Origin: Melioribacter sp.
Lineage (GTDB): Bacteria > Bacteroidota > Ignavibacteria > Ignavibacteriales > Melioribacteraceae
Direction of reading: 5' to 3'
Length of the DNA: 34,031 nt
Assembly (NCBI GenBank): GCA_012026935.1
Contig: VEPI01000112.1
Location: forward strand, 1 to 34,031
The notes beneath the pieces were generated by a model that ran no database searches, was not told the DNA's origin, and saw only the letters and a program-made list of their open reading frames with translations. The translations under genes were made by a program, and so were the position numbers. Positions 1 through 14,921 of this stretch are shown here, piece by piece; positions within the stretch are counted from its first letter, which is position 1; every line of letters begins with the position of its first letter.

Positions 1-30
1 ATAAAAAAATCCCGACTTAAGCCGGGATTT
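1..30 (-). terminator. Rho-independent terminator of the ccm operon
   Basis: Perfect 8-bp arms (AAATCCCG at 7-14, CGGGATTT at 23-30). Read on the minus strand, the hairpin is followed by seven T (9-3). It begins 33 bp past the ccmF stop codon, so it closes the ccmCDEF transcript. Confidence 0.85.
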
Positions 31-63: not shown

Positions 64-2457
64 CTAAACCAACGATTCCTTCGATCTTCTAAACGAAGCT
101 GTAATAAATCCTGCAACCATTGTAAGTACACCGATCCAAACTAAACTGATAAACGGTTTAATGCTTGCATCAATAGTTAAAATTTCTTTTGGTGCTGTTG
201 CAGCAGATTGTCCTTTACTAATTGACGAGAATAATAAACTTACTTCTGCATTTGTAGCGTTCATTGCAGTAATTGAAATTTTCAAATCCGCATCTTTAAT
301 TTCTACTGGAAAATAAACCGGTCCTTGTCCTTCATTTTCCATATACGGTTCAACTTTGTAATCTTTGCCTTTGTAAGCGATTGTTATATCAACACCAATT
401 CTAAATTTGCCTCCGCTTTGCATCGCAGACATATCTTTCGGAAGAACAAATTTATTAAAAGTAATCTCTTTACCTTCGAATGAAACTTTGTCTCCGCCTT
501 TCATTGTGGCAGGTGTACCTTGTTGATTTTCCTGACTATCGGAATAACTAACCGGAGCTACATAGAAATCTTTTGTAAGTCCTACTAAAATATCCGGCTC
601 GCGCATTAAGCTGTTGTTAAATTCTGCAATGAACATAATTGGAGAAACAACACGGACATTGTTTCCATCCTTCACCTCAATGTTCATATGATACTTTTTA
701 CCGTTGTCAAAAGGTGTGTATCCTACAAAAGTTAATTCATGACCAAGCACATTTACTTTTTGACCCTTCACTAAATCAACTTGTTTTTGCTGCGAATGAC
801 CTGCGGTAGCAAGTACACCAATTAAGAAAAGAGAGATACCAATATGTGCAACATAAGCACCAAGATGTGTTTTCTTTCCTTTAAAAATTTTATAAGCAAT
901 TTCCGTGTTAACAAAAAACGCAAATGAAGAAGAAAGAGTTAATATGATTAGCATTAGTCCGTGTACCCCGCCAATAAAAATAACCAGCAGTGTTAAAACA
1001 ACAGTGGAAATTACCGCAAACTGTGATTGCTTCCATAACTGTTTGCCTTCCGTATGTTTCCACTTTAATAAAATGCTCATTCCGTTTAGGAATCCTATAA
1101 TGATTGCAATGGGAAGATTCAATTCATTATAGAAACTTGTTTGTACAGTTGTGCCAAAAATAGGAGCTGATGTACCTACAGCAACTATGATAGCAGCGGC
1201 TATCAACGCAACAGAGCCGGTAAATAATGCAAGCTCGCGTGAAAGAACATTTTCTTCAAATGTAAAATGTTCGGTGAGAAATTTCCATCGGTAAACAATT
1301 CCGCCAATACCAATAACGGTAAACAAACCGAGAAAGATTATTAGGAAAAGATAGACTGCCATGCCGGGTTCAGCAAATGAATGTACTGATGCATCTCCTA
1401 GAATTCCGCTGCGGGTTAAAAATGTACTGTAAAGAACAAGAATGAACGTCATAATGCTTAAGATCAAATTTGTTTTTACAAATCTGCTTCCACCGCCTTT
1501 CTCCTGGGTTTTCTTCTGGACTAAAATTGTATGAATAGATGCAACACCAACAATCCAAGGAACAAGACTTGAGTTTTCAACAGGATCCCATCCCCAATAT
1601 CCGCCCCAGCCCAGAACTCCATATGCCCAGTAACCGCCAAGCATAATTGCTAATCCCAGAACACACGTACCTGCAAGAATCCATGGCATTGCTTGTTTAA
1701 CCCAGTCGCGGTATTCATTTTTAAGAATTGCGGCAAGTGCAAATGAAAATGGAACCGCAGACATTGCAAATCCGGTAAATAAAATTGGTGGATGGATCTG
1801 CATCCAGAAATTTTGAAGTAATGGATTTAGTCCTTTGCCTTGAATAATAAAATCATTAATGGAAATATTATTTGCTACCAATGCAGCATGCAGCTCTTTT
1901 CCCATTTGGACAAATTGTTTGTTCGCTTGCGGATCGGTGAAAATAAAACTTTGAAGAGCAGGCAAAGATAGAAACGCTTGATTAATGTTTTTCAGATCTA
2001 TAAAATCATTTTCCAACCAGATAAAATTGAATGGAGACTTAAGAAGCGGGCTAACCATAATTAATAAAAATGATAGCACAAGAGAAAAAATCATCATGAC
2101 TCTAGGTTCAAGGTCTCCGCGTTTGGAAGTGTAATCCAACAGAATCAGACCGATTACAGCAGTGAAAAAAGTCCAAAGCATAAAACTGCCTTCTTGACCC
2201 GCGTAAAAAGTAGACATAAGTAATCCTGTCGGAAGATCGCTGCCGCTGTAATTGTAAATATATTTATACTGATACTGATGAGTTAATACTGAATAAAGTA
2301 ATAAAGCAGCAGATGCAATGACCATAACAGCAGTAGTATGAAAACCTATTCTTGATAAAGACAATGTATTTTGATAACCTCGATAGGTTAGATAATACAT
2401 TATTACCGTAAACACTCCTGCTAATAATCCAAGAGTGAGCAAAATATTACCGATCAT
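64..2457 (-). CDS. ccmF: Cytochrome c maturation protein CcmF (haem lyase subunit)
   Basis: Integral membrane subunit of the System I haem lyase, which attaches haem to apocytochrome c outside the cytoplasmic membrane. The 797-residue protein is hydrophobic and multi-spanning. It has the WWD-type haem-handling motif WGWDPVENSS (288-297) and the conserved segments MQIHPPILFTG (219-229), TRSGILGDASVHSF (348-361) and HIGISLFLIG (538-547). His222, His309, His359 and His538 are spaced like the four haem-ligand histidines of E. coli CcmF (inference from spacing). A large extracytoplasmic domain (about 555-765) precedes a last membrane helix. The protein is longer than typical CcmF (about 650); roughly 50 residues are inserted between SPF (141-143) and GLNPLLQ (209-215). 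The ATG has AGGAG 6 nt upstream and lies 21 bp after ccmE. It is the last gene of the operon. Confidence 0.95.
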   Translation of the reverse strand: MIGNILLTLGLLAGVFTVIMYYLTYRGYQNTLSLSRIGFHTTAVMVIASAALLLYSVLTHQYQYKYIYNYSGSDLPTGLLMSTFYAGQEGSFMLWTFFTAVIGLILLDYTSKRGDLEPRVMMIFSLVLSFLLIMVSPLLKSPFNFIWLENDFIDLKNINQAFLSLPALQSFIFTDPQANKQFVQMGKELHAALVANNISINDFIIQGKGLNPLLQNFWMQIHPPILFTGFAMSAVPFSFALAAILKNEYRDWVKQAMPWILAGTCVLGLAIMLGGYWAYGVLGWGGYWGWDPVENSSLVPWIVGVASIHTILVQKKTQEKGGGSRFVKTNLILSIMTFILVLYSTFLTRSGILGDASVHSFAEPGMAVYLFLIIFLGLFTVIGIGGIVYRWKFLTEHFTFEENVLSRELALFTGSVALIAAAIIVAVGTSAPIFGTTVQTSFYNELNLPIAIIIGFLNGMSILLKWKHTEGKQLWKQSQFAVISTVVLTLLVIFIGGVHGLMLIILTLSSSFAFFVNTEIAYKIFKGKKTHLGAYVAHIGISLFLIGVLATAGHSQQKQVDLVKGQKVNVLGHELTFVGYTPFDNGKKYHMNIEVKDGNNVRVVSPIMFIAEFNNSLMREPDILVGLTKDFYVAPVSYSDSQENQQGTPATMKGGDKVSFEGKEITFNKFVLPKDMSAMQSGGKFRIGVDITIAYKGKDYKVEPYMENEGQGPVYFPVEIKDADLKISITAMNATNAEVSLLFSSISKGQSAATAPKEILTIDASIKPFISLVWIGVLTMVAGFITASFRRSKESLV

Positions 2458-2478: not shown

Positions 2479-2868
2479 CTACGAGTTAGCTTTTTTTCCA
2501 GCTTGATCTTGATATTTTGATGGGCACTTAGTGAGAATATCAGACGCGTGAAAATTTCCGTCATGATATTTGCCGGTTACAACGACACTTGTTGATGATT
2601 CAAAGTTATTAGGAATTGCACCATGATAAATTACTTTCATCGTGTTTCCTTCGGGGTCTTTCATATAAAAAGAAAAAAGATTATTAGTTTTATCTATCTC
2701 ATAATTTCTTTCTTTAACCCAGCTTCCCGTTGCTTTTACTGTTTTACCTGTTTGCATAACTTTTGCAAAACTGCTTTCGTACTGAACATTAGTTTGTGTA
2801 AATAAATAAATCATCACAGCAAGAAATACAATTATGATAGCTCCGCCGAACATATATTTATTTTTCAT
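2479..2868 (-). CDS. ccmE: Cytochrome c maturation haem chaperone CcmE, Cys-type (CxxxY)
   Basis: Membrane-anchored periplasmic haem chaperone that receives haem from CcmC and passes it to CcmF. It has 129 residues: an N-terminal anchor (about 8-24) followed by the OB-fold, with the typical features VKATGSWV (44-51), VIYHGAIPNNF (79-89) and VVVTGKYHDGNFHASDILTK (95-114). The haem-binding position, usually His in a HxxxY motif (E. coli LAKHDENY), is here LTKCPSKY: Cys115 and Tyr119. Cys-type CcmE proteins are known from archaea and Desulfovibrio-like bacteria, so this is a recognised variant rather than a defect. The start is supported by AAGGAG overlapping the end of ccmD; the gap to ccmD is 4 bp. 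Confidence 0.93.
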   Translation of the reverse strand: MKNKYMFGGAIIIVFLAVMIYLFTQTNVQYESSFAKVMQTGKTVKATGSWVKERNYEIDKTNNLFSFYMKDPEGNTMKVIYHGAIPNNFESSTSVVVTGKYHDGNFHASDILTKCPSKYQDQAGKKANS

Positions 2869-2872
2869 TTAA

Positions 2873-3022
2873 TTATTTCTCCTTTAATTCTTTTTCAATT
2901 GCTTTAAGTCGTTTATCTGTATTAAGAAGGAATAAAAATATCCCCGCCCATACAACAAGAACAATAGCTAATACAATGTATATTGAATTCTTTTCTAGAA
3001 ACTCTACTAATCCGCCTTCCAA
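2873..3022 (-). CDS. ccmD: Small CcmD-like membrane protein, TTG start
   Basis: Open frame of 49 codons between ccmC and ccmE. It has a short acidic N-terminus (MEGGLVEFLEKNS), one hydrophobic helix (about 13-33, IYIVLAIVLVVWAGIFLFLL) and a charged Lys/Glu tail ending KELKEK. This is the topology and size of CcmD, which links CcmC, CcmE and the CcmAB transporter in holo-CcmE release. The only credible start is TTG at 3020-3022: GAGGT overlaps the ccmC stop codon and sits 6 nt upstream, and a TAA stop lies two codons above the TTG. CcmD sequences are poorly conserved, so the name rests on topology, size and its position between ccmC and ccmE. Confidence 0.8.
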   Translation of the reverse strand: MEGGLVEFLEKNSIYIVLAIVLVVWAGIFLFLLNTDKRLKAIEKELKEK

Positions 3023-3030
3023 ATTTTACC

Positions 3031-3753
3031 TCAAATTAATTTTTTAGAAAGATTTTCTTTAATAATTATTGCCTGAGACCTGACTTTCCACATCCAAAAA
3101 TAAAGAATTGTAAATGCTATTAACGATGTAAAAAATACTAACCTCATATTGCCATTCATTTTAAAATCTACAACCGGACTTGTTCCCTGAACTATTTTTC
3201 CCGTGTTGGGATCAATTTCCAAAGAACCGGGATGTAAACCCAGCATTATTCTCGGCATTATGAAAATAAAAAACGGTACAGTTAAAAATGCAATTATAGA
3301 ATAAACCGCCGAGAGACGTGCACGTTTATCTTCATTCTCAATAGCTGAACGAAGAGCAAAAAGCGAACCATAAATTAATAGGAGGATGAAAATGCTAGTT
3401 TCCCGGGGGTCCCAATTCCAAAATGTTCCCCAATTAAATTTAGCCCAAATAGAACCTGTAACAGTTGCAAGAATGCAGAAGACCATTCCAATCTGCAATG
3501 AAGCCGATGATTTTGCATCGTCATCTAAATTTTTCTTTCTCAAATACTTAATACCATAAACCATCGCCATTAAAAATGCCAGTACAGAAAGCCATGCAGT
3601 AGGTACATGGAAAAAAATTATTTTCGCTTTTTCTCCGAGACCAGGTATTATAGGAAATTGCATCCAACCTTGTGGGTGTTCAACAATTGGGAATGAAATT
3701 CCGGTAATTATTACAAAGCACATCAGGACAAAAAGAACTATTTTCCAAATCAT
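3031..3753 (-). CDS. ccmC: Cytochrome c maturation protein CcmC (haem delivery to CcmE)
   Basis: Multi-spanning inner-membrane protein that binds haem on the outer face and loads it onto CcmE. It has 240 residues with several membrane segments. The WWD-type motif WGTFWNWDPRETS lies at 108-120. His49 (FFHVPTAW) and His174 (GLHPG) match the two haem-ligand histidines of the family. Length and motif order are normal. It is the first gene of the operon in this window. ccmA and ccmB (the ABC transporter) are not upstream here and must lie elsewhere if the system is complete; no ccmG or ccmH is present either. The promoter at 3802-3833 precedes it. Confidence 0.95.
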   Translation of the reverse strand: MIWKIVLFVLMCFVIITGISFPIVEHPQGWMQFPIIPGLGEKAKIIFFHVPTAWLSVLAFLMAMVYGIKYLRKKNLDDDAKSSASLQIGMVFCILATVTGSIWAKFNWGTFWNWDPRETSIFILLLIYGSLFALRSAIENEDKRARLSAVYSIIAFLTVPFFIFIMPRIMLGLHPGSLEIDPNTGKIVQGTSPVVDFKMNGNMRLVFFTSLIAFTILYFWMWKVRSQAIIIKENLSKKLI

Positions 3754-3921: not shown

Positions 3922-5022
3922 TTGCCTAAATCAAATCCAATAAAGAGATTATTCGATCTCTACACAAGTGATCTAAGTGCAGATGAGATCAACCGCTTAA
4001 TTAAACGCGATGCCGGAGAAGTTTATGAATTCTTTGCAAAAGATATACCAAAACCTGATCCATCCAAAAATAAAATTATCCGCGGATTTATTTTAGCAAG
4101 AAGTTTATTCAATGCTTTTTTGTTGAAACTAACTCCGGCGAGAAGAATTTTTTACTTAGCAGCTTTATTATTTTTTATTGTAGGGTATTCCCAACCTTCA
4201 CCTGCATATTTGATTCTTTCTTTTTTAATTTTCAATCTACTTATAGCGTTTGAACTTGCAGATAAACTTTCTGCAAAAAACGAACTTGATGTTGCACGTA
4301 AGATTCAATTCGATTTAATACCTAAACATTCTTCAACCATTTTCAATTACGAGATCGTTTCTTACTACGAACCTGCCCGTGAAGTTGGCGGAGATTACTT
4401 TGATGTAATTGAATCGAATGGACACTACTATATCGTAGTTGGAGATATTTCGGGTAAGGGAATGGCTGCGGCTCTTTATATGGTGCGTGTTCAGTCCATC
4501 ATTTATTTATTGCTGGATAGCTTATCTGATGTTAGAAACCTGCTAATAAATATCAAAAAATATTTTTCTAAATCATTACGCAGAGAATATTTTCTTACAC
4601 TATCAATTGCATCTATTGAAAAAAACGGAAAGATAAATTTTGCGCGTGCCGGTCATCCGCCTGCTTTGTGGTTTAAGAATGATAAAAAAGAATTTGAAGT
4701 TGTTTGCCCCAACGGTATTGGTATTGGTTTGAATGATAAAGGTGTTTTTGAAAAAACATTAGAAGAAATTTCATTTCAGCCGTGTGAGAAAGATATTATC
4801 TTTTTCTATACCGATGGGGTAAATGAAGCTATGAATATTCTCAGAGAGCAATTCGGAGAAGAAAATATTAAACGGATCATTAAAAATAATTGTGAAAAGT
4901 CAGCTGAAGATATAAAGAATTCGTTACTAAATGCCGTCACCAATTTCCGTGGTACTGCAAATCAGAATGATGATTTAACTTTTGTAATTTTAAAAGCTAA
5001 TCATTCTGAAGATAAATCTTAA
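3922..5022 (+). CDS. Membrane-anchored SpoIIE/RsbU-type PP2C serine phosphatase
   Basis: Probable serine phosphatase that dephosphorylates an anti-sigma-factor antagonist (STAS protein) in a partner-switching pathway. It has 366 residues. The N-terminal about 75 residues are unassigned, followed by two membrane helices (about 76-90 and 94-112), an ARKIQFDLIPK linker (125-135) as in RsbU-family proteins, and a SpoIIE phosphatase domain. Metal-binding Asp residues are visible: EVGGDYFD (Asp158), GDISGKGMAAAL (Asp175), FYTDGVNEA (Asp298) and NDDLTFV (350-351). The catalytic set is complete. Translation must start at TTG 3922: the frame opens after a TAG at 3901-3903 and there is no earlier ATG; no strong Shine-Dalgarno is visible. 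The 3' end overlaps the convergent Sel1 gene by 26 bp. No sensor domain other than the membrane segment is recognisable. Confidence 0.88.
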   Translation: MPKSNPIKRLFDLYTSDLSADEINRLIKRDAGEVYEFFAKDIPKPDPSKNKIIRGFILARSLFNAFLLKLTPARRIFYLAALLFFIVGYSQPSPAYLILSFLIFNLLIAFELADKLSAKNELDVARKIQFDLIPKHSSTIFNYEIVSYYEPAREVGGDYFDVIESNGHYYIVVGDISGKGMAAALYMVRVQSIIYLLLDSLSDVRNLLINIKKYFSKSLRREYFLTLSIASIEKNGKINFARAGHPPALWFKNDKKEFEVVCPNGIGIGLNDKGVFEKTLEEISFQPCEKDIIFFYTDGVNEAMNILREQFGEENIKRIIKNNCEKSAEDIKNSLLNAVTNFRGTANQNDDLTFVILKANHSEDKS

Positions 5023-6563: not shown

Positions 6564-6980
6564 TTAAATGAGCCACTTCTTTAAAGAGAAATAATTTTTC
6601 CCATCCTTCGTAAAATATTTCATCTCATCCATTAGTTGCTCAATAATATAAAGACCCATCCCGCTCTCAGGCAAATTGTTAATGTCTTGCGGATCAAAGT
6701 CTAGTTTTGAAACAACTAAATTTTCTCTAGGCAAACCTTTATCAATAATAATTATTTCGAAAAAATTGGAATCTTTTTTTACTATAAGATCAATAGACTT
6801 AGTAACATCATTATTATATGAATGTTTAATTACATTATTAAGAGCTTCAGTTAAACAGATCTCCACTGCATTACTTATATGCTGTTCAATGCCATGCAGT
6901 TCCAGAAAAAAACGAATCTGTTTATTAACTAATGCAACATTTCCGTAATCGCTAACAATATTGAAACTTTGTTCAACCAC
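6564..6980 (-). CDS. RsbW-type anti-sigma / HATPase_c serine kinase-like protein
   Basis: A 138-residue single-domain GHKL ATPase of the RsbW/SpoIIAB kind. The N-box CLTEALNNVIKHS (42-54) holds Glu45 and Asn49, the G1-type segment is IIIIDKGLP (76-84), and the glycine-rich lid is ESGMGLYIIEQLMDEM (105-120). Such proteins bind a sigma factor or other target and phosphorylate a STAS antagonist. The start is GTG 6978-6980: an in-frame TGA lies six codons upstream, with GAGG before it. It precedes the Sel1 gene, and the partner phosphatase lies on the opposite strand 1.5 kb away. No STAS gene and no sigma-factor gene is present here, so the target is unknown. Confidence 0.85.
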   Translation of the reverse strand: MVEQSFNIVSDYGNVALVNKQIRFFLELHGIEQHISNAVEICLTEALNNVIKHSYNNDVTKSIDLIVKKDSNFFEIIIIDKGLPRENLVVSKLDFDPQDINNLPESGMGLYIIEQLMDEMKYFTKDGKNYFSLKKWLI

Positions 6981-8851: not shown

Positions 8852-11404
8852 TTATAATTCGTCATATCCTTCTTCAATTCTTCTCTGCTTCTCTTGGTCC
8901 ATCATTTTGCCTTTTGTATCTACAAGACGGTATGAAATACCAAGATTAACTATTCGTGAATCGAATTTCCTTGTATTGATCATATAGTAATTTAGTCCGG
9001 TGGTTTCAGTGTTAAACTTACGAGAATTAAACAGATCCGAAATTCGCAGAGTAAATGCTAATCTTCCATCCATAAAATCTTTTCTTACCATTACGTCCAT
9101 CGAATACATTTCTTTCATTTTTGTTTGAGCTGCAGATCCGCCAAAGAACATTCCGCCGCCCATATCTCCGCCGCCTCTTCCGCCAGTATTTAACATTATT
9201 GACGGTGAAGAATAGAAGAACATCATTTGAAAAATAAAACCATCTGAAATTGTCATCGTTGAACTTAATCTTGCGCTCCAGCTGTAACTACCGGTTTCAC
9301 CGCCGAGTGTTCCTAAATCATCAACACTGTTATTGTAATAAGAAATATTTCCGTTTAGTCTCATCCAATCTGTAATTGGTGAATTAGCGACAAACTCTAC
9401 TCCGTACGATTTACCTTTTGAAATATTTTGGAAAGTAGAATACGTTACTCCATTTGGCATGAGTGTGCTTATCGTACTGATTAAATTTGTACTTAATCTA
9501 TAGAAAAGATTTGTTACCAATGAAGTTTTACCAAGTGTTTTTGTGTAACCAAGTTCTAATGCATTATGGTATTGCGGTCTTAAGTCAGGGTTACCTTTAA
9601 AAACATTTAATGAATCAGAACGGTCTTCATATGGATTTAGTTGTCTATTCTGCGGGCGGTCTATTCTCCGGCTGTAACTTAATTGGATTTCATCCAACCC
9701 GTTAAAATCATAACGCAAGTGAACTGTTGGATAAATATCAAAATAATTACTCTCGTAGGTTTGATTAGTTACATAGCTCATTCCTTTAACAAAAACTTGC
9801 TCGGCACGCAGACCTATTTGAGTTGTAAAACTTCCAAGTGAGTTTGAAAAAATTCCATAAAGTGCATGTACCTGTTCTTTATAATTATAATTATTATTAA
9901 TCAAATTACCTGCACCCCACATTTGATTAGAATAATCCCAATTCAAATAGTCGTTGAACATTGTCAAATCTTTTATCTGGCTGCGTAATCCGGATTCCAA
10001 TCTTCCCCAATCTCCAAGAGGTTGAACATAGTTAGCTTGGATTAACCATAACTTGTTGGCATTATCAGAAAGTGATCTTTGCAAGGTGGAAGTTTGATTA
10101 GGAATAAAATACAACTGGGAAATTTTTGAATCACTGTTCATAGAGCTTTGCGAATACATAACATCGCCAGTTAATTCTTGATTTTTGTTCTCATAGGTTT
10201 TTTTATAACTCAAAGTATAATTACCTGAGCTATTGTTGCGTACACCATCAGAAACTCTATTAAACTGGCTTTGAATATTATTCGGATCAGTGTAATTAAT
10301 ATTTCCGATTGTACTTCCGTTATTCATATCTCCAAATCTGAACTGTGCTGAAAGAGTTACAAATTCTTTATCTGCTAAATAATAATCTGCACCGATATTT
10401 AAACTGTGATTATTCATTCTATTCTGATTATCTGAATTTTGATCAAGTGTAGAATTAATATTTCCGTTTTGTGATGGAAAAGAAGAATTTCTAAGTGTAG
10501 TTCCTCCTCCACTCATGTTAAAAAATCTGCCGTCGTAACTAGAGAAAACATTAAAATTGTCTCCACGCAAATTCAAATTAACAGAAGAATTATATCTTCC
10601 TTTTGTTCCTGCGTTACCCATTAATGTTCCGTTAACGCCAAGATTAGAATTCTTTTTCAATATAACGTTAATAATCCCGGCTGTCCCTTCAGGATCATAT
10701 TTTGCTGAGGGATTAGTAACAATTTCAATACTCTCAATTTGACTGGCCGGAATTTGTGAAAGAACATCCGAACCGCTAAAGCCTGCTAACGCTGCTGGTC
10801 TTCCATCTACTAAAACATTTATATTGGTGTTTCCTCTTACTGCAACGCCGCCGTCTGCATCAACAGAAACTGAAGGAATATTTTGCATTACATCAACAGC
10901 AGTTCCACCTGAGTTGGCCATCAATTTATCAACAGTATAAACTTTCTTATCTAGATTTGAAGTTAATGCGTCTCTTTGAGATTGGACTACTACCTCATTC
11001 ATATTAACGTTTTTCGGTCTTAATTTAATTAGTCCGTATGTAATTTCGGTTTTGTTCGGAATAACAGTTAGAGAATCAAATCTTTTTGTTGAGTAACCGA
11101 TATAAGAAACCTTCATAAAATATCTTCCGTACATAACTTTGGATAATTCAAATTTTCCTTTTTGATCAGTCACAGTTCCATTTGCAACTGTTGAATCTTT
11201 CCATTTATAAATTACAATGTTTGCATATTCGATCGGTTCAGATGTTTGTGCGTCTATCACAGTACCGCTAATTTTTCCGATTGGTTGGAATTGCGAAGGA
11301 TTCATTCCACCTTGCTGCATTCTCTGCTGAGCTGAAAGCTCTAATGATAATACCAATACAATCGTAAAGAAAAAGAGCTTTCGAATAGTTGTAAAATTTT
11401 TCAT
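8852..11404 (-). CDS. TonB-dependent receptor-like outer-membrane beta-barrel protein
   Basis: An 850-residue outer-membrane protein. Order of parts: signal peptide (1-25, ending LELSAQ); a short Met/Gln-rich stretch; a carboxypeptidase-like regulatory domain (about 43-120, GKISGTVIDAQTSEPIEYAN...VSYIGYST); a plug domain (about 135-250: NEVVVQ, IPSVSVDADGGVAVRGNTNI, IESIEIVTNPSAKYDPEGTA, IINVILKK); then a long beta-barrel. The architecture is that of the Bacteroidetes 'outer membrane beta-barrel family' receptors rather than SusC, and no SusD gene is beside it. A Gly/Met-rich loop (NTGGRGGGDMGGGMFFGG) lies near residue 770. AGGAG precedes the ATG. No siderophore or metal gene is adjacent, so the substrate is unknown. 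Confidence 0.9.
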   Translation of the reverse strand: MKNFTTIRKLFFFTIVLVLSLELSAQQRMQQGGMNPSQFQPIGKISGTVIDAQTSEPIEYANIVIYKWKDSTVANGTVTDQKGKFELSKVMYGRYFMKVSYIGYSTKRFDSLTVIPNKTEITYGLIKLRPKNVNMNEVVVQSQRDALTSNLDKKVYTVDKLMANSGGTAVDVMQNIPSVSVDADGGVAVRGNTNINVLVDGRPAALAGFSGSDVLSQIPASQIESIEIVTNPSAKYDPEGTAGIINVILKKNSNLGVNGTLMGNAGTKGRYNSSVNLNLRGDNFNVFSSYDGRFFNMSGGGTTLRNSSFPSQNGNINSTLDQNSDNQNRMNNHSLNIGADYYLADKEFVTLSAQFRFGDMNNGSTIGNINYTDPNNIQSQFNRVSDGVRNNSSGNYTLSYKKTYENKNQELTGDVMYSQSSMNSDSKISQLYFIPNQTSTLQRSLSDNANKLWLIQANYVQPLGDWGRLESGLRSQIKDLTMFNDYLNWDYSNQMWGAGNLINNNYNYKEQVHALYGIFSNSLGSFTTQIGLRAEQVFVKGMSYVTNQTYESNYFDIYPTVHLRYDFNGLDEIQLSYSRRIDRPQNRQLNPYEDRSDSLNVFKGNPDLRPQYHNALELGYTKTLGKTSLVTNLFYRLSTNLISTISTLMPNGVTYSTFQNISKGKSYGVEFVANSPITDWMRLNGNISYYNNSVDDLGTLGGETGSYSWSARLSSTMTISDGFIFQMMFFYSSPSIMLNTGGRGGGDMGGGMFFGGSAAQTKMKEMYSMDVMVRKDFMDGRLAFTLRISDLFNSRKFNTETTGLNYYMINTRKFDSRIVNLGISYRLVDTKGKMMDQEKQRRIEEGYDEL

Positions 11405-11451
11405 GTTCTCCTGCTTTCGTGATTATTAAAAGTTGTTCGTCATTGAAACAC

Positions 11452-11459
11452 CAAAAATA
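11452..11459 (-). promoter_or_regulatory. TAnnTTTG -7 element for the receptor gene
   Basis: TATTTTTG on the minus strand, an exact TAnnTTTG match, about 48 nt upstream of the receptor ATG. The upstream TTTG is 26 nt away rather than 19-21, so only the -7 half is well supported. Confidence 0.4.
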
Positions 11460-11542
11460 TCTATTTGGTTTAATTTAGATGACATCAAATGATTATTGTT
11501 TCCTTCATTTAACTTTTTTTAACAATTTTTTTTGAATATACG

Positions 11543-11704
11543 TTAAGATAGTATGCAGACGCCTTTAATAATTATTGTATTAACTAATGATGAGAGTGAG
11601 AGGTTTGATCTTTGTTTTACCAGAAGAAGTTTTTTTTCTTCAATATAATTTCGGGCTTCCAATTTATAGAAGTAAACGCCGCTCGGAAGATTTGACCAAT
11701 CGAA
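11543..11704 (-). pseudogene. Decayed C-terminal secretion-domain (T9SS type A-like) remnant
   Basis: The minus strand here reads FDWSNLPSGVYFYKLEARN then YIEEKKLLLVK, the unmistakable end of a type A C-terminal sorting domain (compare LPSGVYFYTLKAGEFIETKK in the M1 peptidase of this window). There is no intact gene: an in-frame TAA lies immediately upstream (11705-11707), the preceding NPFNP and DxLGxEV segments are missing or out of frame, and the reading frame continues 24 codons past the usual KKLLLVK end to a TAA at 11543-11545. It is the tail of a deleted or frameshifted secreted protein, possibly moved here by recombination. Confidence 0.75.
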
Positions 11705-11958
11705 TTAAGAAAAAGTTAATAATGTAATTGATCAAGGGCAATTAATTGAAGTGTTGCCTGCTTATAGTATTGTAATAAGTATCAATTATTTCATGTTTCG
11801 CCGTAAGGAAAGTCTGTTTTGTTCGTCTATATCTATCATTAAGAATAGCAGTTAGAACAGAAGTAGGCTAAAAAATCTTTCTAAATGTAAGTTGAATTAT
11901 TGCTAAATAATTTTTGTTATCATTTAAGTAAAACCGACTAACTCAATAAGGGATTGTC

Positions 11959-12630
11959 ATGAAAGAAATTAAAAAAATATATTTACTAACATTTCTATTT
12001 TTAATCGGATGTAATTCCAACTCAAAAAATAATTTATCAACAGCAGATGTAAATGCTCAGTCAAAAATTGAGGGTAAGATGAACGATCAAAATAAATATG
12101 AAGTTGCAACTTTCGGCGCCGGATGTTTCTGGTGCACTGAGGCAGTATTTCAAAGATTAAAAGGAGTTGTTAAAGTTGAAAGCGGTTACAGTGGTGGTTC
12201 AGTTCCAAATCCTTCCTATGAAGCTGTCTGCACCGGAAAAACGGGACATGCTGAATGCTCACAAATAACTTATGATCCAAAAATAATTTCTTATAAAGAA
12301 CTGTTGGAAGTCTTCTGGAAAACTCATGATCCGACTACGCTTAACCGACAAGGTGCCGATGCTGGAACACAATACCGCTCAGTAATTTTTTATCACAACG
12401 ATGAGCAGAAACAACTTGCAGAGAAATACAAAAATGAGTTAGAGTCCGCTCAGATTTGGAGCGATCCTATTGTAACAGAGATAAGTCAACTTAAAAACTT
12501 TTATAAAGCGGAAGATTACCATCAGAATTATTACAACCAAAATGGCAACAAACCATATTGCAGTTTTGTAATTACACCTAAGATTGAGAAATTCAAAAAA
12601 GTTTTTGCTGAGAAGCTAAAGAAAGAATAG
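11959..12630 (+). CDS. msrA: Peptide-methionine (S)-S-oxide reductase MsrA, lipoprotein form
   Basis: Repairs oxidised methionine by reducing methionine-(S)-sulfoxide. It has 223 residues. An N-terminal lipoprotein signal (lipobox LIGC, Cys18) is followed by a linker (19-45) and the MsrA domain. The catalytic motif is [13 protein letters not shown] (52-64) with nucleophile Cys56, then [19 protein letters not shown] and [15 protein letters not shown]-terminal Cys in KPYCSFVI is the likely resolving Cys. The lipobox predicts a periplasmic, membrane-anchored enzyme that would protect exported proteins; its electron donor is not encoded nearby. There is no MsrB fusion or neighbour. A GGGAT ribosome binding site lies just before the ATG. 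Confidence 0.93.
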
Positions 12631-12640
12631 TTAACAAAAT

Positions 12641-12677
12641 GTCATTCCGGCTTCTGCCGGAATGACAATACTATTTT
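12641..12677. terminator. Perfect 11-bp hairpin between convergent genes (terminator or dispersed palindrome)
   Basis: GTCATTCCGGC (12641-12651), TTCT loop, GCCGGAATGAC (12656-12666). On the plus strand TATTTTTT follows 5 nt later, so it can end msrA; it may also end the S9 peptidase transcript from the other side. The sequence resembles GTCATTCC-type palindromes that occur in many copies in diverse bacterial genomes. Confidence 0.7.
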
Positions 12678-12701
12678 TTCAATATCAACTTAAACTATTC
12701 G

Positions 12702-14921
12702 TTAAAGATTTTTCTTCCAGAATTCCAGCATTTTATTGTAAAGATGAATTTGTGCCGGGCGGTCGGAAATTCCGTGTTGTCTCATCGGGTAAATCATTAA
12801 ATCAAACATGATATTTGCTTTTATCAGCTCATCCATAAATGCATACGCATTTTGGATGTGAACGTTATCATCATAAGTACCATGAACGATCATCAATCTG
12901 CCGTGTAAACTTTTTGCACTTTTTACCAGAGAAGTTTTATCATATCCGTCTGGGTTAACTTCCGGGGTTTTCATAACTGACTCAGCAAACTTTGAATCGT
13001 AAAAATGCCAATCGGTAACTGCGGCAACTGCAATTCCAGCTTTAAATTCTTTCGAGTGAGTCATTGCATTCAATGTAAATGTTCCGCCTCCGCTCCAACC
13101 CCAAACCCCGACCCGCGATGAATCAATATATGATTGTTTCTTGAACCATTTAACTCCATCAACCAAATCATTCAGTTCAACTTCGCCGCCAAAATTTCTA
13201 TCAATTAAATTTTCCAATTTTTTACTTATTGCTGCCGAGATCCGCGGATCAATCAATGCAACTAAGAATCCGTTATCTAACAAAACTTGATCGTAATAAA
13301 TTGAGCCGCGCCATTTATTTAATACTTGCGGCGCCGATGGTCCACCGTAAACGTAAATAATTAAAGGATATTTTTTATTCGGATCAAAGTCTTTAGGTTT
13401 CATAATTTCTGCCGGAAGCGGAAATCCGTCGCGTGCCGGGACAGTAAATTGTTCCGGTCGTTGTAAATCAAGAGAAGCTAATTTATCTGAGTCATAGCCG
13501 GCAATTTGCTTAACAAGCTTTCCATCACTTTTGTAAAGAGTTAGAACAGGTGGTGTTTTAATATTTGAGTAAGTATCCAGATAATATTTTAAATCAGAAC
13601 TAAAATTGATTGCATGAGTTCCTTCTTCTTTGGAAATACGTTTCATTCCCGTTCCATCAAACTTAATGCTGTAGAGATATTTTTCTGTTGCTGATTTTTC
13701 TTGTGCAGTGAAATAAATAATTTCATTCTTTTCATCTACAGCGCTTATTGATTTCCTCACCCAAAATGCCGAACCGCCGCTTGCAACAACAGCCCAATCT
13801 CCTTTTGTAACTTGATTAATCAACTTACCTTCATCTGAAAATCTGTAAATGTGTGCGTAACCGCTTCGTTCTGATACCCAGAAAAATTCTTTTCCATTTT
13901 TAATGAAATAAAGATCGTCCGAAACATTCACCCAGCAAGGGTCAGTTTCTTTCAATATCAGTTTTACTTTTCCGTTCGTGCAGTCTGCAAAGAATAAATC
14001 AAGTTCATCCTGCATTCTATTCATTGTCTCGATAGAAACCTGTTTACTTCCGGGCAGCCAATTTACACGGATAATATACTCGTAAGGATTGTTTGAGAAA
14101 TCAAGCCAGGTTGTTTTTGCGGTTTCTATCTCAGCAACACCAACTTTTACAACCGGATTAGTTCCACCTGTTTTTGGATATCTTTGCTTGATAACGTTCG
14201 GTACTGCTTGTTTAAAATCAGAGTAGTACATAATGCTAACCGGTGATTCATCCGTTTGCAAATAAGCAATCGCTTTGGAATCGTTCGACCACCAATAAGC
14301 AACATCCCTCCGTCCGAAAACTTCTTCCCAATAGACCCAGTTCAAAGTTCCGTTAAGCAAAGTTTCCGTGCCGTCGGTTGTAATTGCCTTTTCAGTTTTG
14401 GTTTTAATATCATAAACAAAAATATTGTTGGTTCTTACATAAGCAATTAGTTGTCCGTCAGGTGAAAAGCTAATGTTCTTCTCATCTTCTTTTGTATTAG
14501 TCACTTGTTCAAAAGAAGCGCTTTTCAGATTGAGCAGAAAAATATCGCCGTCAAAAAGATAAAGAGCATTCTCACCGTTTTTATCATATGAATTTGGCTG
14601 CATTAATATTGCGGGGGTTTTTTCATGAAGAATATCTTTTAAACTCTCCAGAGCTTTTTTCAAATCAAGTGCTGGTTTAGTGGCTGTGGTTGATGGATCG
14701 AATAACTCAATTGTTCTTTGATCAGCCGGCTTACGCGGATCATACATCATTGCATTACCATTTCCAAGCCACTGAACATTCGGTAACTGCGTAATTGATT
14801 GTGCTTCCGGTGAATATCTCCACTCAATAGAAAGTTTTTTCTTCTCTTGTGCTGATACAAGTATAGAAAATATTAACAACAGTATTAACACGCTCTGCAA
14901 TCTTCGGTGAATTTGTAACAT
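12702..14921 (-). CDS. DPP IV-like S9B family serine peptidase, secreted
   Basis: Prolyl dipeptidyl-peptidase-type enzyme, expected to remove X-Pro (or related) dipeptides from peptides in the periplasm. It has 739 residues: a signal peptide (ending LVSAQ, 25), the DPP IV beta-propeller and an alpha/beta-hydrolase domain. The propeller carries the double-Glu substrate motif in NWVYWEEVFGR (Glu199, Glu200). The catalytic triad is Ser610 (GWSGGG; the family often has GWSYGG), Asp684 (HGTYDDNVH) and His716 (MRQHGI), spaced as in human DPP IV. GGAG precedes the ATG. It is the last gene of the M28 / unknown / S9 operon, 27 bp after its neighbour. Confidence 0.92.
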   Translation of the reverse strand: MLQIHRRLQSVLILLLIFSILVSAQEKKKLSIEWRYSPEAQSITQLPNVQWLGNGNAMMYDPRKPADQRTIELFDPSTTATKPALDLKKALESLKDILHEKTPAILMQPNSYDKNGENALYLFDGDIFLLNLKSASFEQVTNTKEDEKNISFSPDGQLIAYVRTNNIFVYDIKTKTEKAITTDGTETLLNGTLNWVYWEEVFGRRDVAYWWSNDSKAIAYLQTDESPVSIMYYSDFKQAVPNVIKQRYPKTGGTNPVVKVGVAEIETAKTTWLDFSNNPYEYIIRVNWLPGSKQVSIETMNRMQDELDLFFADCTNGKVKLILKETDPCWVNVSDDLYFIKNGKEFFWVSERSGYAHIYRFSDEGKLINQVTKGDWAVVASGGSAFWVRKSISAVDEKNEIIYFTAQEKSATEKYLYSIKFDGTGMKRISKEEGTHAINFSSDLKYYLDTYSNIKTPPVLTLYKSDGKLVKQIAGYDSDKLASLDLQRPEQFTVPARDGFPLPAEIMKPKDFDPNKKYPLIIYVYGGPSAPQVLNKWRGSIYYDQVLLDNGFLVALIDPRISAAISKKLENLIDRNFGGEVELNDLVDGVKWFKKQSYIDSSRVGVWGWSGGGTFTLNAMTHSKEFKAGIAVAAVTDWHFYDSKFAESVMKTPEVNPDGYDKTSLVKSAKSLHGRLMIVHGTYDDNVHIQNAYAFMDELIKANIMFDLMIYPMRQHGISDRPAQIHLYNKMLEFWKKNL

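What the first reader, a model, noticed from the sequence alone, without database searches (positions are those of the whole stretch)
2479..2868. Cys-type CcmE (CxxxY) in a minimal ccmCDEF operon
Seen: the haem-binding position of CcmE is Cys115 (LTKCPSKY) rather than His. Known: CxxxY CcmE proteins from archaea and Desulfovibrio work in Ccm systems that lack CcmH and related parts. Inference: this organism may run a reduced Ccm pathway, consistent with ccmG and ccmH being absent beside ccmF here. ccmA and ccmB are also not adjacent.
Basis: partly seen in the sequence, partly recalled or inferred. Interest (0 to 1): 0.55.

Follow-up and report, generated by a model that had tools for sequence, protein, structure and literature searches.

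The report
Cysteine haem carrier with double-capped ligase
This bacterium attaches haem to its cytochromes with a known shortened version of the standard machinery, whose haem carrier uses a cysteine, and its haem-attaching enzyme carries a duplicated outer domain that may stand in for a missing helper protein.

Summary
Confirmed: CcmE at 2479-2868 (-) has Cys115-Pro-Ser-Lys-Tyr119 where E. coli has His130...Tyr134, in a tight ccmC-ccmD-ccmE-ccmF unit followed by a terminator. The genome (99.95% complete) has one ccmE, ccmA and ccmB on another contig, no CcmH match, no System II and nothing over the CcmG cut-off, yet it encodes CXXCH cytochromes. This is System I*, already published; the filing is not new. 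What I add: (1) all 75 CcmE read (own plus 74 relatives, the better-scoring part of class and phylum samples) have KCPSKY; weak CcmH matches in 13 of 392 phylum genomes are, where read, another CxCGxC family. (2) CcmF here, and in 77 of 81 frames collected, has 115-255 residues between a cap tyrosine and the last membrane helix; nine CcmF of proteobacteria, actinobacteria, Deinococcus and bacilli have 17-23. The extra stretch is a diverged second copy of CcmF's own beta-cap (profile score 45.2, best of 50 shuffles 14.4; repeated on 21 further inserts). Haloarchaeal CcmF with no CcmH beside it has an unrelated insert at the same place. Hypothesis: the second cap takes over part of CcmH's work. 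Untested: Desulfovibrio CcmF, and all chemistry.

The parts
7..30 (-). intrinsic terminator after ccmF (10-pair stem, U tail)
   Evidence: z -3.74 against 200 shuffles
64..2457 (-). ccmF, 797 aa, haem ligase; H222, H309, H359, H538 map to E. coli H173, H261, H303, H491
   Evidence: PF01578 + PF16327; mapping; model matches 6ZMQ, Z 35.9 over 565 residues
556..792 (-). first beta-cap of CcmF (residues 556-634), shared with short CcmF
   Evidence: overlay on Thermus CcmF 6ZMQ
211..540 (-). second, duplicated beta-cap of CcmF (residues 640-749), absent from short CcmF
2479..2868 (-). ccmE, 129 aa, Cys-type haem chaperone
2524..2526 (-). codon TGC of Cys115 (CPSKY), presumed haem-binding residue
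2873..3022 (-). ccmD (49 aa, alternative CcmD family, TTG start)
   Evidence: TIGR04391 and PF20077 above cut-off
3031..3753 (-). ccmC, 240 aa; H49 and H174 map to E. coli H60 and H184
   Evidence: PF01578; mapping

Best explanation
The locus is the haem-delivery and ligation half of a System I* cytochrome c maturation pathway in a relative of Melioribacter (Ignavibacteria). CcmAB (on another contig) with CcmC and CcmD load haem onto CcmE; CcmE holds it on Cys115, with Tyr119 as likely axial ligand; CcmF reduces the haem through its transmembrane haem and transfers it to CXXCH without CcmH. Shown here: the genes, residues, their conservation and the missing matches. Inferred from work on Desulfovibrio and Methanosarcina: covalent haem on Cys115 and sufficiency without CcmH. 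New inference: CcmF carries a duplicated periplasmic beta-cap that may replace CcmH's part in handling the apocytochrome.
For: Cys115 maps to the haem-binding His130 of E. coli and is present in all 75 CcmE read. One ccmE, ccmAB present, no CcmH, no ResB other than a sub-threshold hit to CcmF itself, six cytochrome c domain matches in frames with CXXCH, four DsbD/CcdA-type membrane domains. Haem ligands of CcmF and CcmC conserved. In Melioribacter roseus the CcmF protein rises in aerobically grown cells, in which a c551/c552 cytochrome is also found (passages). Precedent: M. acetivorans CcmE C120A carries no haem and CcmABCEF suffices there (passages); the Desulfovibrio operon makes cytochrome c in E. 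coli without CcmG and CcmH (review passage). Second cap.
Against: No chemistry was tested. D. vulgaris CcmE was reported to bind ferric haem non-covalently through its cysteine (review passage). Eleven thioredoxin-like matches to the CcmG profile lie below its cut-off, so CcmG may be replaced and not lost. CcmI was not sought. CcmH-like proteins of another type exist in 16 of 197 class genomes, nine over the Pfam cut-off. The lower-scoring part of the phylum's CcmE was not read. The second cap goes with CcmH absence in few independent lineages.
Confidence: 0.85

Rival explanations
1. The second beta-cap of CcmF is lineage baggage of the Bacteroidota and their neighbours and has nothing to do with the absence of CcmH.
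For: Most long CcmF come from one phylum and records named Calditrichales or Calditrichaeota, so the association with no CcmH may be a single event. The haloarchaeal insert is not homologous.
Against: Cys-type CcmE with CcmH (Metabacillus, Cytobacillus) goes with short CcmF, so the insert does not follow the cysteine; three haloarchaeal loci without CcmH beside ccm have an unrelated insert of 142-148 residues at the same site.
Confidence: 0.5
2. Cys115 binds haem as a thiolate ligand, not by a thioether, so CcmE is a non-covalent haem chaperone here.
For: D. vulgaris CcmE, a CxxxY protein, was reported to bind ferric haem non-covalently through its cysteine (review passage).
Against: Reviews report covalent haem on D. 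desulfuricans CcmE, and haem staining of M. acetivorans CcmE is lost in C120A, though that residue also affects protein stability there.
Confidence: 0.2
3. An unrecognised protein, for example one of the TlpA-like plus DsbD pairs, does the work of CcmG and CcmH.
For: The two frames of this genome that score best against the CcmG/DsbE profile lie beside a DsbD-type gene: adjacent on contig C73, within about 1.6 kb on C56.
Against: In M. acetivorans CcmG and CcdA are dispensable; that paper argues CcmH is not replaced by another protein but says it cannot exclude one shared with M. barkeri.
Confidence: 0.3
4. A canonical System I whose CcmG and CcmH were lost in assembly.
For: The contig ends 63 bases past ccmF.
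Against: Genome 99.95% complete; terminator after ccmF; no classical CcmH recognised in the class and phylum samples either; the His of CcmE is missing.
Confidence: 0.02

Closest known systems
System I* of Desulfovibrio desulfuricans (Goddard 2010, not read; described in PMC3601427 passages)
   Same: CxxxY CcmE, works without CcmH and CcmG
   Different: CcmI is reported to help there and was not sought here; whether its CcmF has a second beta-cap could not be tested
Methanosarcina acetivorans CcmABCEF (PMC9084895 passages)
   Same: CxxxY CcmE, no CcmH or CcmI in that archaeon, CcmF as synthase
   Different: no CcmD and CcmF split into two genes there; here CcmD is present and CcmF is one long protein
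E. coli System I (CcmABCDEFGH)
   Same: CcmC, CcmE and CcmF families, haem-ligand histidines of CcmC and CcmF
   Different: His130 CcmE, CcmG and CcmH present, CcmF with 18 residues between cap Tyr and the KP motif against 134 here
System II CcsBA of Helicobacter hepaticus (7S9Y)
   Same: WWD core (Z 23.0 over 290 residues); the second cap resembles part of its periplasmic domain, Z 10.0 over 89 residues
   Different: little sequence-level support (but see G222 and G261 in Tried and rejected), no ResB gene here
Thermus CcmF (6ZMQ)
   Same: fold, Z 35.9 over 565 residues
   Different: 660-residue chain; the phmmer match ends at own residue 637, about where the second cap begins

Membership tests
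System I* (CxxxY variant of the Ccm system) | CcmE with Cys in place of the haem-binding His, followed by xxxY | tested here: met
   C115/Y119 map to E. coli H130/Y134; same in all 74 relatives read
System I* (CxxxY variant of the Ccm system) | core genes ccmA, B, C, D, E, F | tested here: met
   ccmA by position: its NCBIfam model scores 95.7 against a cut-off of 131.6 and other ABC models score higher
System I* (CxxxY variant of the Ccm system) | haem bound covalently to that Cys | not testable with these tools
   needs haem staining or mass spectrometry
System I* (CxxxY variant of the Ccm system) | CcmH absent (common, not required) | tested here: met
   own genome no match; class 16 of 197 weak matches, nine over the cut-off, the 13 loci fetched (class and phylum) all of a CxCGxC or CxxCGxC type
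Canonical System I | haem-binding histidine in CcmE | tested here: not met
Canonical System I | CcmH | tested here: not met
Canonical System I | CcmG | tested here: inconclusive
   11 thioredoxin-like matches, none over the DsbE cut-off (best 70.9 against 123.15 bits)
Canonical System I | CcmI | not tested
   no search was run for it
System II (ResB/CcsA) | ResB (CcsB) protein | tested here: not met
   only a sub-threshold hit, to CcmF itself
CcmF haem ligase | WWD motif and four haem-ligand histidines | tested here: met
CcsBA-type periplasmic domain (for the second cap) | homology to ResB/CcsBA | tested here: inconclusive
   structure Z 10.0 and 8.1 against a background up to 8.1; profile comparison at most 8.4% probability; two phylum CcmF match Pfam ResB over a stretch that may include the second cap

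The most novel reading that the evidence does not exclude
CcmF of CcmH-less systems has become a self-sufficient cytochrome c synthase by duplicating its periplasmic beta-cap: the second cap binds or gates the apocytochrome at the WWD site, the work CcmH does elsewhere, and haloarchaea reached the same end with an unrelated domain inserted at the same point. This would be the compensating feature of System I* for which Stevens and colleagues reported no bioinformatic evidence in 2011.
Probability: 0.3. Interest if true: 0.72.

Novelty: new variant of a known kind. Interest (0 to 1): 0.5.

Why it matters
How CcmF works without CcmH has been open since System I* was described; the 2011 review says bioinformatic approaches gave no evidence for compensating features in other Ccm proteins (passage), and the 2022 archaeal study leaves open whether CcmF alone does the job of CcmFH (passage). 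A duplicated cap in CcmF is a concrete, deletable candidate. The survey also suggests that cysteine-type CcmE is common and may be the rule in the Bacteroidota phylum, whereas the passages seen here name deltaproteobacteria, Chloroflexi, Firmicutes and archaea; this widens the set of organisms in which the chemistry can be studied, Melioribacter roseus among them.

Tried and rejected
Insert as a ResB domain: left open, not adopted. For it: Foldseek puts Helicobacter CcsBA first (E 1.5e-4, but TM-score 0.19); VIA-align gives CcsBA Z 10.0 and 8.1 on the second cap, with unrelated viral beta proteins up to 8.1; and two phylum CcmF frames match Pfam ResB late in the frame (G222, ResB 325-455, 30.6 bits; G261, ResB 298-454), a stretch that by its position in G222 reaches into the inserted region. 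Against it: profiles of the insert compared with 16 fused CcsBA, 8 ResB-like proteins and one true ResB reach at most 8.4% probability, and other ResB hits in CcmF fall on common parts and occur in short CcmF too (29 of 58 long CcmF at E <= 0.01, positions shown only for the window's own; 3 of 10 comparison proteins).

CcmH in the samples: 16 of 197 class genomes rang, nine over the Pfam cut-off; 13 of 392 in the phylum sample, six over it; best single match 30.5 bits. Thirteen loci were fetched (L033-L042, L089-L091); all show one C-x-C-G-x-C or C-x-x-C-G-x-C ... C-x-C pattern and score 14.6-25.2 bits with a model of my own against 175-212 for the six CcmH it was built from. I read the neighbours of three: metal-efflux type genes by eye. 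That some of these proteins act as CcmH is not excluded; the window's genome has no match.

Exceptions to the long CcmF (81 frames): L003 is cut by the locus end and L103 by the contig end; L150 is split by a frameshift inside the second cap (in G428, a like locus, the remainder stands in the next frame); L149, identical to G013, really lacks the second cap. It also lacks about 11 residues of the WWD region; one search counts two CcmF_C matches in that genome, and the second was not located.

His/Cys survey bias: the 75 CcmE come from the best-scoring matches (194 of 197 class and 264 of 392 phylum genomes have CcmE); the lower-scoring families, the large family f39 among them, and second CcmE copies were not read. 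The 80 named loci were found with a pattern that contains KCPSKY and do not count as a test of the motif. The lists are capped.

Papers: searches. Searches (CcmE or CcmF with Bacteroidetes) returned no paper. Of seven papers (PMC9084895, PMC3601427, PMC3884852, PMC10663686, PMC5492636, PMC12285233, PMC6204919) I saw passages only; none mentions a duplicated cap or a Bacteroidota-wide Cys CcmE. Subscription papers are mostly not held, so this is weak evidence of absence.

Full report
WHAT IS THERE. The - strand carries ccmC (3031-3753), ccmD (2873-3022), ccmE (2479-2868) and ccmF (64-2457), with gaps of 8, 4 and 21 bases. Pfam and NCBIfam name them: CcmE PF03100 62.9 bits against a cut-off of 24.6; CcmD TIGR04391 37.1 against 24; ccmC and ccmF by PF01578, ccmF also by PF16327. 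The NCBIfam models of CcmE, CcmC and CcmF all score below their cut-offs, a sign of divergence from the forms they were made for. CcmE aligns with H130 of E. coli at Cys115 and Y134 at Tyr119. The residues that match E. coli CcmF H173, H261, H303, H491 are H222, H309, H359, H538, and CcmC H60, H184 match H49, H174. That these E. coli residues are the haem ligands is recalled; passages describe TM-His and P-His ligands without giving all numbers.

THE REST OF THE GENOME. The window is a whole contig (34,031 bases) of a 3.18 Mb, 99.95% complete assembly. It ends 63 bases after ccmF, so the absence of ccmG and ccmH beside ccmF cannot be read from it; but a terminator follows ccmF. Genome-wide: one CcmE; CcmB on contig C92, overlapped by a CcmA-like ATPase gene and followed by lgt; no CcmH match; 11 thioredoxin-like matches to the CcmG/DsbE profile, none over its cut-off; ResB only as a sub-threshold hit inside CcmF itself; four DsbD-type membrane domains; six cytochrome c domain matches, five over the cut-off, all in frames with a CXXCH. 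So the organism has clients and, as far as searched, one maturation pathway, CcmABCDEF. The closest named loci by CcmE are Melioribacter and other Ignavibacteria.

HOW WIDE THE CYSTEINE FORM IS. In the class sample 194 of 197 genomes have CcmE; in the phylum sample 264 of 392. I read 78 CcmE frames, 75 after removing three double fetches (own plus 74 relatives): all have KCPSKY (one, L067, reads IVKCPSKY, escaped my first pattern and is printed in full). These are the better-scoring matches; the rest were not read. CcmH: 16 of 197 in the class and 13 of 392 in the phylum at E <= 0.001, nine and six of them over the Pfam cut-off, best single match 30.5 bits. The 13 loci fetched all hold one CxCGxC-type (L035: CxxCGxC) protein, far weaker than true CcmH in a model of my own. 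That model, built from six CcmH, finds none in the 80 named loci; 61 of these loci hold a long ccmF and 57 of them more than 1 kb of DNA after it; a frame like E. coli CcmG stands in 5 of the 80. ccmB is found in 47 of the 80 loci and a CcmA-like ATPase in 39. Three close relatives (L098, L099, L106) lack both within their loci, as the window does, so the split of ccmAB from ccmCDEF is shared within the group.

COMPARISON WITH WHAT IS KNOWN. This is System I*. I read passages of Stevens 2011 (PMC3601427): cysteine CcmE in archaea and some bacteria, mostly deltaproteobacteria, also Chloroflexi and Firmicutes; CPSKY in 25 of 36 bacterial genomes; about one third keep CcmH; the Desulfovibrio operon makes cytochrome c in E. 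coli without CcmG and CcmH. Gupta 2022 (PMC9084895, passages) shows CcmABCEF to suffice in Methanosarcina and C120 of CcmE to be needed for haem and for protein stability. Allen 2006 and Goddard 2010 were not read (Goddard is not held).

THE ADDED FINDING: CcmF HAS TWO CAPS. Stevens 2011 says System I* might have compensating features in other Ccm proteins but that bioinformatics gave no evidence. Aligning CcmF shows a long insertion between a conserved D-x-Y motif of the periplasmic cap and the last membrane helix. Counted as residues between Y632 and K767 of the window's CcmF: 134 here; 115-255 in 77 of 81 frames collected (the window, its phylum, two Calditrichota records and records with other or no phylum name such as L130, L166, L176); 17-23 in nine others (E. 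coli, Marinibacterium, Sphaerotilus, Rhizobium, Pseudonocardia, Iamia, Deinococcus, Metabacillus, Cytobacillus). Of these nine, six have an annotated CcmH in the stretch fetched (for Sphaerotilus named only as a cytochrome c-type biogenesis protein); for Rhizobium, Iamia and Deinococcus none was seen there and it may lie on the chromosome. The four of 81 that do not fit are told in Tried and rejected. The 81 frames were not made non-redundant.

IT IS A DUPLICATION. Profiles of the first cap (residues 556-634) and of the inserted stretch (640-749), each from 56 sequences, match each other at 95.7% probability, score 45.2; with disjoint sets of rows 94.2%, score 40.9; 50 column-shuffled versions reach at most 14.4, reversed profiles 0.4-0.5%, CcmE 0.2-0.4%. 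The cap of the short CcmF (8 sequences) also matches the insert, 89.8%, score 39.9, shuffles at most 14.4. Of the 77 long frames, 56 went into these profiles; of the other 21 inserts, 20 match the insert model at E <= 0.001 (L058 does not, E 0.18), and a profile of those 21 alone matches the first cap at 91.5% (score 38.7) and the short CcmF at 93.2%. The AlphaFold model of the periplasmic part has mean pLDDT 91.0, that of the full CcmF 87.9; the full model overlays Thermus CcmF with Z 35.9 over 565 residues.

DOES IT REPLACE CcmH? For: long where CcmH was not found, short where it is present; and the two bacilli with a cysteine CcmE and an annotated CcmH have the short form, so the insert does not follow the cysteine. 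Three haloarchaeal plasmid loci without CcmH beside ccm carry 142-148 residues at the same point, not homologous to the Bacteroidota insert by profile. Against: few independent lineages, no Desulfovibrio or Methanosarcina CcmF, no functional data, whole genomes of the plasmid hosts not searched, and one phylum CcmF (L149/G013) without the cap in a genome without a CcmH match. I put it at 0.3.

MECHANISM IN ONE LINE. CcmABCD load haem on CcmE Cys115 (inferred from relatives); CcmF takes it at the WWD site and joins it to CXXCH (inferred from the family); the doubled cap is the candidate for the missing acceptor-handling step. Huynh 2023 (PMC10663686, passages) places a beta cap directly above the haem in both CcsBA and CcmF and says CcmH likely aids CXXCH binding, which makes the idea reasonable but does not prove it. 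In Melioribacter roseus the CcmF protein rises in aerobically grown cells together with respiratory-chain proteins (passages), so CcmF at least is made by a relative.

Noticed in passing
L033-L042, L089-L091 (for example L033 1213-2004): A family of CcmH-like proteins with CxCGxC (once CxxCGxC) and a downstream CxC, in some Ignavibacteria and relatives; in the three loci whose neighbours I read it lies among genes that look like metal efflux, away from ccm.
   Followed up: partly
L189 478-2674: A congener (G047) carries a true ResB-CcsA pair (System II) next to a frame with several CXXC(H)-like motifs, in addition to System I*.
   Followed up: no
L149 6444-8507, L232 1885-3948: A ccmE-adjacent CcmF without the second cap and without about 11 residues of the WWD region; it may be a degenerate or specialised copy.
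   Followed up: partly
L150 6397-8780, L233 841-3224: CcmF split by a frameshift inside the second cap in a Thermochlorobacter assembly and in G428.
   Followed up: partly
L181 7839-10241, L184 7857-10193, L187 6947-9349: Haloarchaeal plasmid ccm loci: long CcmF with an unrelated insert at the same site, and CcmE with RAHEG in place of H/CxxxY; a thioredoxin gene lies directly before ccmF.
   Followed up: partly
L179 9967-10467, L180 9517-10014: The annotated CcmH of two Bacillaceae plasmids lacks the usual LRCxxC motif (HPPGCTDSMTADYC instead) beside a CPSKY CcmE.
   Followed up: no
G000:C73 57718-61627, G000:C56 about 10362-13069: Pairs of a TlpA-like protein and a DsbD-type protein; candidate reductant route for apocytochromes.
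   Followed up: partly
window 3922-5022 and 6564-6980: Beside ccm, frames that read by eye like a SpoIIE-type phosphatase and an anti-sigma kinase (recalled, no search run).
   Followed up: no
control genomes: Methanosarcina acetivorans rings for Pfam ResB; this may be its CcmF1, the split-off C-terminal part of CcmF.
   Followed up: no
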